45,018 nt of DNA from a virus, in IMG/VR virus record IMGVR_UViG_3300044510_000006, positions 1 to 45,018 of that record. One strand, 5' to 3'. Positions 26,294 to 29,029 of this stretch are shown here, one piece after another; positions within the stretch are counted from its first letter, which is position 1; each line of letters starts with the position of its first letter. The position numbers and the translations under genes are program-made. The notes beneath the pieces are model-generated. The model was not told where the DNA came from. It searched no databases and saw nothing but the letters and a program-made list of their open reading frames with translations.

Positions 26294-27070
26294 ATGGAAA
26301 TAACCCTTGATTCAATAGCACCTAATGCATCCCTAACTAAGTGGTACAGGGAGCAAATGCAAGGCATGATGGATGAAATGCGTTCCGATTTAATTCGGGA
26401 CGTAGTTAAGCCTATGCGGTCTGAAATTGCTATGGATGGCATTTTGGATTGGATGGGACATGTTATTGACGGTTTAGTGAGTCGGTGGCAAGATCGTTTA
26501 GATAAGCTATCGACTCAAGTAGCGCAAGAGTTGGTGAGTAAGGCTAAAACCAACTACGACAAGCGCTTGTTAGGCATTCTTCGTAAGCGTGGATTCACTG
26601 TTAATTTTCGTCATACGCAATACATGGAAGATCAAGCGCAGATTGCCTTAGGTGAGAATGTTGCTCTAATTAAATCAATCGGTAATGAGTATTTAGATAA
26701 AGTTCGGTCTGCGGTTTGGCGTAGTGTCAAGAATGGCTATGATGTTGAATCACTAATCAAGCAACTCAAAGAGATTGACGGCGTAACAGATCGTAGGGCA
26801 AAGAATATTGCAAAGGATCAGACGGCTAAGTTGAATCAGGCCTTTGAAAAGGCGCGCGCTGAAGAGTTGGGGATCAAGGAAGCTATTTGGCTACATTCTG
26901 GCGCATCAAGAGAACCACGTGCTAGCCACAAAAAGGCTAACGGGACAAGATATAATATCAAGGAAGGGTGTTATATCGACGGAGAATTTATCCAGCCCGC
27001 TTGGCTCCCAATGTGCAAGTGTAGAGCCAAGCTTATAATTGAGATACCAGATAACTTAATTAATCAATAG
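26294..27070 (+). CDS. Minor head protein, Mu gpF-like
   Basis: 258 residues. The C-terminal part holds the Mu gpF domain: RRAKNIAKDQTAKLNQAFEK, then LHSGASREPRASHKKANGTR and MCKCRAKLII with the conserved cysteines. The N-terminal half is helical. MuF-type proteins associate with the portal and are part of prohead assembly or are ejected with DNA. The stop overlaps the end of the converging endonuclease gene by 7 nt. Confidence 0.88.
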   Translation: MEITLDSIAPNASLTKWYREQMQGMMDEMRSDLIRDVVKPMRSEIAMDGILDWMGHVIDGLVSRWQDRLDKLSTQVAQELVSKAKTNYDKRLLGILRKRGFTVNFRHTQYMEDQAQIALGENVALIKSIGNEYLDKVRSAVWRSVKNGYDVESLIKQLKEIDGVTDRRAKNIAKDQTAKLNQAFEKARAEELGIKEAIWLHSGASREPRASHKKANGTRYNIKEGCYIDGEFIQPAWLPMCKCRAKLIIEIPDNLINQ

Positions 27071-28005
27071 CTGTAAATTTTAATGCTTTTCACAATGGTA
27101 GGTTCTATTTTCTGAGAATAGAATTTACCATCATTGCCAGTTCTTAATTCGCAATCCTTTGATCTAATGGTTAATACTTTAAAATAACCGTCAGGTAATG
27201 GGCTTTTATTTTCCTTGTGAATCTCATCAATCACATAATCTACATTTGCAATAAGGTTTGACACATCATCAAATAGAACATAGATTGTGGTCAAATTTAA
27301 GCTCTTAAGGAATTTAATCCTGCCGTTTTTCTTGTGTGTATCCCCTCTATAGCCAGTTCCACTCCTTAATTCCAGCGCCACATTTCCAATTAAAAAATCC
27401 AAGCTATACCTACCAACGGCTTTCTGCCATGTATGTTTTATTTTTCTAGCTTCGAATATTTCTTTTATTTCAAGCTCTCCTTTTCCAGTCATATTTTCGT
27501 AAGCATTATTTTCAAGTGTTTTTGCTCTCATTATTCTGCTTTCTTCGCGTTCAGCCTTACCTCTTTTGGCTTTATGTGCAGCAAATGCCCTTAATTTTCT
27601 TTGTTCAGGAGTGAATTGTTTTGCGCTAATATAACTTGCTTCGCTTGGAGTCCTGATATATACGTTATTTTCTACAAGTCTTTGTCTTATAGCGCATCTG
27701 CTAACATTGAGTTTTTTAGCTATAAATAATTCGCTAAGACCACTGTTATACATATTTATGATTTCTTGTGTTGGTAAATTCTTTCTTGTGTTCTTTCCTG
27801 TTTCTTTTGGTATTGTGTAACCCATATTGCGAATTATTTTCGACATAACACTCTGGTGTCTGCCAACTTGCAAGCAGGCATCTTTGAATGTAGCACCATC
27901 ATTAAAGACTAGGGATATTACTTGATTGATTTCTTGATCAGATACTTTATTAACCATGTGTACTCTCGCATGTAATTGATGATTAATTTTATCATACAAT
28001 CGCAT
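27064..28005 (-). CDS. HTH plus Vsr/DUF559-like endonuclease, candidate homing endonuclease
   Basis: 313 residues from the ATG at 28005 or 297 from the ATG at 27957, which has GAGAG upstream and may be preferred. Two HTH-like segments (KDACLQVGRHQSVMSKIIRN and ELFIAKKLNVSRCAIRQRLV) precede a nuclease-like domain: GKGELEIKEIFEARKIKHTW, YSLDFLIGNVALELRSGTG and IKFLKSLNLTTIYVLFDD, the layout of Vsr-like/DUF559 PD-(D/E)xK enzymes (Glu ... Asp ... Glu-x-R). It is the only minus-strand gene in the structural region and lies beside the candidate large RNA. Function as a free-standing homing endonuclease is inferred. Confidence 0.7.
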   Translation of the reverse strand: MRLYDKINHQLHARVHMVNKVSDQEINQVISLVFNDGATFKDACLQVGRHQSVMSKIIRNMGYTIPKETGKNTRKNLPTQEIINMYNSGLSELFIAKKLNVSRCAIRQRLVENNVYIRTPSEASYISAKQFTPEQRKLRAFAAHKAKRGKAEREESRIMRAKTLENNAYENMTGKGELEIKEIFEARKIKHTWQKAVGRYSLDFLIGNVALELRSGTGYRGDTHKKNGRIKFLKSLNLTTIYVLFDDVSNLIANVDYVIDEIHKENKSPLPDGYFKVLTIRSKDCELRTGNDGKFYSQKIEPTIVKSIKIYSY

Positions 28006-28050
28006 TTTTTGAATTAAGTAAAATTGATAACCAATATCAAAACAACTGAT

Positions 28051-28078
28051 TTGTATTTTTAGTTTGGTTTGGTATTAT
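28051..28078 (+). promoter_or_regulatory. Candidate promoter of the large RNA
   Basis: TTGTAT (28051-28056), 16-bp spacer, TATTAT (28073-28078). It lies 45 nt upstream of the divergent endonuclease start, at the beginning of the gene-free stretch. Transcription would start near 28085. Confidence 0.6.
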
Positions 28079-28084
28079 TTGATT

Positions 28085-28620
28085 ATTGATTGAATCCATG
28101 TGCGACATAATCACGAACTATTGGCAATTAAAAAAAACAATGGTCATCGTGTGGTGTGGTATCACTAATGCAACTATTCGCACGTTGCCGATCAATAGCA
28201 CAGCGCAAAACAGATGCTTCCAAGAGCTTTAATCTGTGGCGGAGCTTCACAATACTTGGTTTTATTGGATGAGGCGAAACCTGTGTTTTAACATATAGGT
28301 AAATTGTATATAGCTTGGGGCATGAAACCCCGATTGATGTTTACTTGTATTCTAGGTTATTCAGCTTAGTGACCGCCAGAAAGTGGGCAACTTAGAGAAG
28401 TGAATTCTGATGGGGATTCCTGTTGGTTGCTAGCGTTCACTTCATCTAAGTTTAAATTCAGACGAAAGCACAAACCCGAAAGGGATATTACGTCTTGCGA
28501 AGTGAATCAATGAAAGTGCAATCACTAGCCCTTAAACACAAAAGGTCTTAGCGCATAAGGCAAAATGCAAAGTGTGTTAGTTAAGCCAATAGAACCATCC
28601 TAACGGGTGGTTTTATTTTA
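28085..28620 (+). ncRNA. Candidate large structured non-coding RNA, about 530 nt
   Basis: No credible gene is present in either strand between 28006 and 28699. The stretch begins after a promoter-like sequence and ends in a strong terminator. It is dense in helices: a 16-bp stem with one bulged A (28389-28404 with 28436-28452), GGGG-CATGAAA-CCCC (28317-28331), AGACG/CGTCT (28460-28464, 28491-28495) enclosing a CCC-GAAA-GGG tetraloop, ACAGAT/ATCTGT (28210-28215, 28232-28237), CTTAA-ACACA pairing with TGTGT...TTAAG near the 3' end, and several GAAA loops. GTGCGA/TCGCAC (28100, 28178) and CTATTG/CAATAG (28118, 28193) could form a pseudoknot. Size, position and style recall the large ornate phage RNAs such as GOLLD and ROOL, but identity with either is not shown. 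Confidence 0.7.
28593..28620 (+). terminator. Terminator at the 3' end of the large RNA
   Basis: AACCATCC (28593-28600), loop TAAC, GGGTGGTT (28605-28612), then TTTATTTTA. The T tail on the plus strand fixes the RNA as plus-strand. Confidence 0.85.
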
Positions 28621-28636
28621 TCTAAACTATTTTATA

Positions 28637-28651
28637 TTTACTATTGAGAAT
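28637..28651 (+). promoter_or_regulatory. TTTACTATTGAGAAT element before the accessory operon
   Basis: Exact copy of the early operator element; TACTAT (28639-28644) is the -10. The -35 region is weak (TTTTAT). It puts the operon 28700-31576 under the same control as the early genes, although it lies inside the structural region. Confidence 0.75.
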
Positions 28652-28699
28652 TATATTTAAGAGTGGTATGATTTAGTTATTCAGTAGAAGGGGTTTGAA

Positions 28700-29029
28700 A
28701 TGATTGTGGTTGAAAATAGTAATATTGTTGATTGGGATAAATATCCTGAGTTTATTTGTGCCTTGGTTATGCAGACCACTGAGGATTTAAAAACCATTGA
28801 TGGGTTTGTGTGTCCGAAGGGTGAGGAAATTACTTGGCTTCTTGATAAATCTCCGAGAATCGTTGGTGATGATATTTTTATTGAGAATGCTAAATTAAAT
28901 TGTTTAGGTGGTTTAGGATTTAATGGGCTTTTATCGAGCATTGATCTTCCTGCTGATCTAAAAGAGATCCACTACAAACCTAAGCCAAAGATGGATATTA
29001 AAAAATATAAAGAGGAGTTTGTAGAATGA
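28700..29029 (+). CDS. Hypothetical protein, first gene of the accessory operon
   Basis: 109 residues, AAGGGG upstream. It reads as one compact domain (WDKYPEFICALVMQTTEDLK, VCPKGEEITWLLDKSPRIVG) and is not recognised. The stop overlaps the next start (ATGA). Directly downstream of the large RNA terminator and the operator-like promoter. Confidence 0.65.
   Translation: MIVVENSNIVDWDKYPEFICALVMQTTEDLKTIDGFVCPKGEEITWLLDKSPRIVGDDIFIENAKLNCLGGLGFNGLLSSIDLPADLKEIHYKPKPKMDIKKYKEEFVE

What the first reader, a model, noticed from the sequence alone, without database searches (positions are those of the whole stretch)
28006..28699. Large structured RNA candidate (about 530 nt) beside an endonuclease gene
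Seen: nearly 700 nt without a credible gene in an otherwise packed phage genome, starting with TTGTAT-16-TATTAT and ending in a good plus-strand terminator at 28593-28620. Many helices are visible by eye, the best being a 16-bp stem with one bulge (28389-28404 with 28436-28452) and a nested AGACG/CGTCT stem around a CCC-GAAA-GGG hairpin; GAAA loops recur, and a crossing pair near the 5' end suggests a pseudoknot. Known: phages carry large ornate RNAs (GOLLD, ROOL). Inference: this is one of them or a new member of that style of RNA.
Basis: partly seen in the sequence, partly recalled or inferred. Interest (0 to 1): 0.9.

Follow-up and report, generated by a model that had tools for sequence, protein, structure and literature searches.

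The report
Phage mosaic RNA of swappable modules
The gap holds a real ~540-base structured RNA of an Acinetobacter virus, built from interchangeable small-RNA modules, one of which is a copy of an RNA that bacterial plasmids keep beside a predicted RNA-cutting enzyme, so it may be a decoy that protects the virus (the protective role is not shown).

Summary
The phage (Obolenskvirus type) has a non-coding transcript unit, about 28083-28620 (+), with its own promoter and terminator. It matches no Rfam family (GOLLD, ROOL, HEARO and group I/II introns included). It is not one monolithic ornate RNA. In 21 distinct relatives the same promoter and two scaffold hairpins carry different cargo in each slot: 13 A-insert types, 9 B-insert types and 4 kinds of 3' module. 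Cargo elsewhere includes a tRNA-like element with a two-base anticodon and a permuted tmRNA. In this window, module M1 (28201-28283) is homologous to a plasmid RNA that lies convergently 68-97 bp downstream of a PBECR2 nuclease gene (37/37 places measured; 72 RNA against 75 PBECR2 records). A covariance model built without Acinetobacter copies finds M1 at 35 bits (E 1.5e-7); its kissing loop covaries strongly. The phage has no PBECR2 gene; nor do phages IME-Ap7, Ab15 and Arash, which also carry the RNA. Domain A is also supported by covariation and stands alone in other phages. Best mechanism: a combinatorial decoy/antitoxin-mimic RNA against RNA-cutting host or plasmid systems, comparable to pseudo-ToxI of phage PhiTE. 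Homology and structure are shown; function is inferred.

The parts
28051..28078 (+). sigma-70-type promoter, TTGTAT-16-TATTAT
   Evidence: Sequence; conserved in all 21 distinct Obolenskvirus copies; a similar promoter stands before the free-standing A element of L019
28083..28198 (+). Domain A: closing stem P1 (28083-28092/28189-28198), hairpin with loop UGCGA (28096-28110), variable insert, hairpin GCAAC-UAUUCGCAC-GUUGC (28170-28188), loop-loop pair GCGA/UCGC
   Evidence: 27 distinct copies: P1 pairs 2-7 change in register and stay paired in 25-27 of 27; hairpin stem CUGUG/CACAG, CCGUA/UACGG, CCAUG/CAUGG; alone with own promoter/terminator in L019 and L071; inside a 20-bp stem in Friunavirus phages
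28201..28283 (+). Module M1: homologue of the PBECR2-partner RNA (two hairpins joined by a kissing loop CCAAG/CUUGG)
   Evidence: CM R1, built only from non-Acinetobacter copies found beside PBECR2 genes, 35.3 bits, E 1.5e-7; covariation of helices and the kissing loop in 13 sequences
28297..28346 (+). Module M2: hairpin around GGGGCAUGAAACCCC with closing stem AGGUAAA/UUUACUU
   Evidence: Same core with a different 12-bp closing stem in AP22/L004 and again in L072; 94.8% identical piece in Ab15
28371..28390 (+). Hairpin D (GACCGCC..GAAAG..GGCAA), a separator that can occur up to three times per locus
   Evidence: Stems GCC/GGC, GCUAG/CUAGC, GCCAC/GUGGC, AUUAG/CUAAU in relatives
28389..28452 (+). 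Scaffold B: 16-bp stem with one bulged A; its interior is a cargo slot (29 nt here, up to 127 nt in relatives)
   Evidence: 9 interior types in 21 distinct loci; also in ~95-102 kb phages and beside Pseudomonadales-1 RNA in L020
28460..28578 (+). 3' module C: stems AGACG/CGUCU, CCC/GGG, GUGA/UCAC, AACACA/UGUGUU, GCAU/AUGC
   Evidence: Diverged copy in Ab15 keeps all five stems through changes on both sides
28593..28620 (+). intrinsic terminator
   Evidence: stem of -13.8 kcal/mol followed by a T-rich run; loop and stem vary in relatives

Best explanation
28083-28620 is one transcript carrying several independently evolving structured RNA modules on a fixed frame (promoter, A, D, B, terminator). 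Module M1 is the phage's copy of a small plasmid RNA that accompanies a PBECR2 (barnase/EndoU/colicin/RelE-like) nuclease. The phage has only the RNA. Most likely the plasmid RNA binds and restrains the nuclease, and the phage transcript supplies a mimic that keeps such RNases, or RNases acting on tRNA-like substrates for other modules, from damaging the infection. Recombination between phages swaps cargo so that each carries a different set. Shown: structure, mosaicism, homology of M1, pairing of the RNA with PBECR2 in plasmids, absence of PBECR2 in the phages. Inferred: nuclease activity, inhibition by the RNA, transcription during infection, decoy role of the other modules.
For: M1 is found by a covariance model built from Enterobacterales/Pseudomonas plasmids and IMG/VR contigs with PBECR2 only. 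RNA and PBECR2 go together: all 11 PBECR2 loci inspected have the RNA, 37/37 measured places are convergent with a gap of 68-97 bp, and genus counts match between 75 PBECR2 and 72 RNA records. Kissing-loop covariation with up to four pair types per position. PBECR2 is absent from this genome and from phages Arash, Ab15, IME-Ap7 and AP22, while the same search detects it in three plasmids. RNA-only copies exist in three phage lineages: Obolenskvirus, the ~100-kb Ab15/Herod type and Salmonella phage Arash, the Ab15 and Arash copies inside tRNA clusters. Cargo reassortment. tRNA-like cargo with a two-base anticodon and a permuted tmRNA in relatives. Precedents: pseudo-ToxI of PhiTE (PMC3475682); phage tRNAs that evade tRNA-cutting defences (PMC10264068, PMC11555353).
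Against: No experiment shows that PBECR2 is toxic, that the RNA inhibits it, or that the phage RNA is made. The RNA is a single unit convergent with the nuclease gene, unlike type III toxin-antitoxin operons. Few of the ~95 related Acinetobacter phage records carry M1: a search with M1 alone finds three besides the window. No plasmid partner was found for the other modules, and Acinetobacter chromosomes could not be scanned. An abortive-infection role for this PBECR2 protein is not established: no PADLOC or NCBIfam match.
Confidence: 0.5

Rival explanations
1. A structural/ornate RNA of GOLLD/ROOL type that assembles into an RNA-only particle and encloses or exposes tRNA-like cargo; modules are linker cargo.
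For: Large phage RNA; Ab15 carries both a relative of this RNA and GOLLD in one tRNA cluster; GOLLD linkers sometimes hold tRNAs and GOLLD and ROOL form cages (PMC12286853); kissing loops can drive assembly.
Against: No Rfam match; no constant large core, and modules stand alone as ~110-170-nt RNAs elsewhere (L019, L071, plasmids).
Confidence: 0.15
2. M1 is a target, guide or activator of the PBECR2 nuclease rather than its inhibitor; the phage copy subverts or triggers it.
For: The data show association, not the sign of the effect.
Against: A phage gains nothing obvious by keeping an activator of a host RNase; three phage lineages keep it without the nuclease.
Confidence: 0.15
3. The interval is a recombination or insertion hot spot between late genes that collects RNA-gene debris (tRNA, tmRNA, ribozyme, plasmid RNAs) without a phage function.
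For: Degenerate tRNA-like and permuted tmRNA cargo; mosaic content.
Against: Compensatory changes in A, M1, D and C point to selection on structure; promoter and terminator are kept in all copies.
Confidence: 0.12
4. A cis-acting element (attenuator, processing or packaging signal) for the genes around it.
For: Constant position downstream of the head gene region; terminator at its end.
Against: Interior content and length vary from 394 to 919 nt; modules occur in other genomic places, including plasmids.
Confidence: 0.05

Closest known systems
pseudo-ToxI of phage PhiTE / type III toxin-antitoxin ToxIN (PMC3475682)
   Same: A phage non-coding RNA that resembles the RNA partner of a plasmid-borne endoribonuclease; in one escape mutant acquired from the plasmid by recombination; pseudoknotted RNA
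   Different: Nuclease is PBECR2, not ToxN; RNA is a single 83-nt unit with kissing hairpins, own promoter, convergent to the gene rather than a repeat array upstream; here it is one module of a longer composite RNA
GOLLD (RF02032) and ROOL large phage RNAs (PMC12286853)
   Same: Large, structured, phage-encoded, near tRNA clusters in some phages, may contain tRNAs
   Different: No match to the Rfam models; no constant large core; made of separable modules
Phage tRNAs that evade anticodon nucleases, retron effectors or Septu (PMC10264068, PMC11555353, PMC13096335)
   Same: Phage-supplied RNAs against RNA-cutting defence; tRNA-like cargo in relatives
   Different: Some cargo in relatives has a damaged anticodon loop and cannot simply replace a cut tRNA; this window's copy has no tRNA call
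Pseudomonadales-1 RNA (RF03046)
   Same: Lies just upstream of scaffold B in L020
   Different: Not present in the window

Membership tests
GOLLD / ROOL / HEARO / group I and II introns | Match to the family covariance model | tested here: not met
   cmscan of the window at gathering score: 0 matches; 27950-28750 at E <= 10: only three chance hits. The same search finds GOLLD in Ab15
PBECR2-partner RNA (defined here) | 83-nt fold with two hairpins and kissing loop | tested here: met
   35.3 bits, E 1.5e-7 at 28201-28283; helices retained
PBECR2-partner RNA (defined here) | PBECR2 gene convergent within ~100 bp | tested here: not met
   No PBECR2 in the phage genome: a solitary copy
Type III toxin-antitoxin system (ToxIN-like) | Repeat RNA antitoxin upstream of and co-transcribed with a toxin | tested here: not met
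   Single unit, own promoter, convergent with PBECR2; no PBECR2 nuclease in the phage
RNA antitoxin mimic (works like pseudo-ToxI) | Inhibits the cognate nuclease during infection | not testable with these tools
   Needs expression and infection assays
tRNA / tmRNA genes | ARAGORN or Rfam tRNA/tmRNA match in the window copy | tested here: not met
   None in the window; present in relatives L022, L025, L033

The most novel reading that the evidence does not exclude
An RNA-based counter-defence island: a single phage transcript whose frame holds exchangeable RNA modules, each a mimic of an RNA recognised by a different host or plasmid RNase system, and which exposes a previously undescribed family of nuclease-RNA pairs (PBECR2 plus kissing-loop RNA) on plasmids of Acinetobacter, Pseudomonas and Enterobacterales.
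Probability: 0.42. Interest if true: 0.93.

Novelty: categorically new. Interest (0 to 1): 0.82.

Why it matters
It turns an unannotated gap in a common group of Acinetobacter phages into a testable counter-defence RNA. It predicts a new nuclease-RNA partnership on plasmids of many clinically relevant genera and gives a list of RNA modules whose targets can be sought one by one. It also suggests that large phage RNAs and phage tRNA clusters may be stores of RNA mimics.

Tried and rejected
Rfam at gathering and permissive thresholds: nothing real in the window. Retron link: M1 in NZ_CP107290 lies in a type VI retron neighbourhood, but the second plasmid shows only mob and rep genes besides M1 and an unannotated PBECR2, so the shared partner is PBECR2, not the retron. 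Type I antisense reading: the RNA ends 68-97 bp short of the PBECR2 match. Plasmid partners for the other modules: none at E <= 0.01 with a 2975-nt query of cargo and scaffold pieces from the relatives. AlphaFold of two PBECR2 proteins gave a poor model (pLDDT 53), so no fold search was made. PDB sequence search: nothing. MAFFT alignment A2 misaligns the middle of M1; a hand-made structural alignment was used for pair counts and the CM search as an independent check. The hand alignment was fitted to the structure, so its percentages lean towards it.

Full report
Observation. The RNA folds 2.7 standard deviations below shuffles. Rfam finds nothing in it, and ARAGORN finds no tRNA or tmRNA in the window.

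Distribution. blastn finds the locus in 95 phage records, all Acinetobacter. In most, only short islands match at high identity: the promoter and start of A, the 3' end of A, the B stem and the terminator. Pieces also occur in Friunavirus podophages (A), in ~95-102-kb phages (B, and in Ab15 also M1, M2 and C), in two A. pittii plasmids (M1 only) and in IMG/VR contigs.

Mosaic. 21 distinct loci were extracted and cut at conserved anchors. They share a frame but differ in cargo: A inserts of 12 types plus the window's own, 14 kinds of piece between A and B, 9 B interiors and 4 kinds of 3' module. Cargo reassorts; for example one B interior (AGCACACAACAG...) occurs with three different 3' modules (L002/L025, L030, L034). 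Total length runs from 394 to 919 nt. Cargo in relatives includes a tRNA with a two-base anticodon (L022), a second tRNA-like element (L033), a class II tRNA-like 3' module by eye (L009, L030) and a permuted tmRNA with tag ANDNVFGAKTLAA (L025). None of these is in the window's copy.

Domain A. In 27 distinct copies the closing stem changes in register (GAUCG/CGAUC, GAAUG/CAUUC, GUUG/CAAC, a 20-bp version in Friunavirus), and so does the first hairpin stem (CUGUG/CACAG, CCGUA/UACGG, CCAUG/CAUGG). The loops NGCGA and UAUUCGCAC are nearly invariant and complementary. L019 and L071 carry A alone between a promoter and a terminator, so A is a small RNA in its own right.

Module M1. The piece 28202-28282 matches two A. 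pittii plasmids at 95-96%, where it is a separate small RNA with its own promoter, closing stem and terminator. In one plasmid a PBECR2 nuclease gene is annotated convergently beside it. The other was predicted to have it, and does: an unannotated copy, 78% identical, running across the record start. PBECR2 genes from Enterobacter, Leclercia, Pseudomonas, Yersinia, Pantoea and IMG/VR contigs all have an equivalent RNA in the same place. Its geometry is fixed: 37 of 37 measured places are convergent, gap 68-97 bp, median 71. The RNA is found in 72 plasmid records and the protein in 75, with closely matching counts per genus apart from the two Acinetobacter plasmids, whose diverged RNA this query does not reach.

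M1 structure. In 13 sequences nearly every pair is kept while the letters change, and the kissing loop shows up to four pair types per position: UUAGGG/CCCUAA, UCAGGG/CCCUGA, UUGCAG/CUGCAA, CAGUUGG/CCAACUG, CCAAG/CUUGG. The Salmonella phage copy adds UCAAGG/CCUUGA. A covariance model from nine non-Acinetobacter copies finds the window's M1 at 35.3 bits, E 1.5e-7, and among the loci searched nothing except plasmid and phage copies of this RNA. In the window the closing pair is switched from G-C to C-G, as if the core had been grafted onto another stem. AP22 shows the same for M2, with a new 12-bp stem.

The nuclease is missing from the phages. PBECR2 is not in this genome nor in phages Arash, Ab15, IME-Ap7 or AP22, while the same search detects it in three plasmids. 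RNA-only copies thus exist in three phage lineages (the Ab15 copy is scored and lies below the first-look filter). In Ab15 and Arash they lie inside tRNA clusters. In Ab15 a GOLLD RNA lies ~1.1 kb further on.

Module C. The Ab15 copy differs at many positions but keeps all five stems. Hairpin D varies with matching stems; in the window one pair of it is a mismatch.

Function. PBECR domains are predicted metal-independent RNases of the barnase/EndoU/colicin/RelE fold (PMC5512222). One relative is preceded by an overlapping ribbon-helix-helix gene, as toxins of toxin-antitoxin pairs often are. A phage that keeps only the RNA half of such a pair resembles PhiTE, which evades ToxIN with pseudo-ToxI RNA, in one mutant taken from the plasmid by recombination (PMC3475682). 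Phage tRNAs are reported to counter tRNA-cutting defences (PMC10264068, PMC11555353). I therefore think the locus is a set of RNA mimics. That the RNA inhibits PBECR2 and that the other modules are also decoys is inference.

Novelty. The mimic idea has a precedent (pseudo-ToxI). What I know of no precedent for is a composite phage RNA whose slots are filled with different, separately existing small RNAs, and the PBECR2-RNA pair itself; this is why the novelty box says categorically new, with the mechanism marked as analogous to a known one.

Limits. No transcript evidence. Acinetobacter chromosomes could not be scanned. Novelty of the nuclease-RNA pair rests on Rfam 15, PADLOC, NCBIfam and an open-access paper library in which only two papers mention PBECR. 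It could be described in work not held there.

Noticed in passing
L028 ~1910 and L034 ~1744: Cargo with hammerhead-ribozyme-like cores (CUGAUGA-stem II-GAAA-stem III-UC, stem I AUGA/UCAU or GAGC/GCUU), read by eye; Rfam gave no hammerhead hit at E <= 1 and ViennaRNA does not fold them that way by default
   Followed up: partly
L025 1776-2109 (phage BUCT628): Permuted tmRNA with tag ANDNVFGAKTLAA inside the same RNA locus
   Followed up: partly
plasmid records, e.g. L039 1501-2153, L041, L044: PBECR2 nuclease gene with a convergent 83-nt kissing-loop RNA on plasmids of many Gammaproteobacteria; no Rfam, PADLOC or NCBIfam entry found
   Followed up: yes
L020 11462-11741 (-): Scaffold B hairpin directly after a Pseudomonadales-1 RNA and its terminator in another phage contig
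   Followed up: partly
L015 (phage Ab15) 3214-3579: GOLLD RNA in the same tRNA cluster as the relative of this RNA; several annotated 'hypothetical proteins' there overlap RNA genes
   Followed up: no
L016 2630-4388 (-): Type VI retron HTH and RT genes immediately upstream of PBECR2 in one orientation on an A. pittii plasmid with tet(39)
   Followed up: no
window 27064-28005 (-): 313-aa protein with N-terminal helix-turn-helix and, by eye, a Vsr/EDxHD-like endonuclease end; no Pfam hit, weak PHROGs hits only
   Followed up: partly
phage records under the RNA locus, e.g. L023 1691-2149, L028 1574-2305: Probably spurious small 'hypothetical protein' annotations over this RNA in public records
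   Followed up: no
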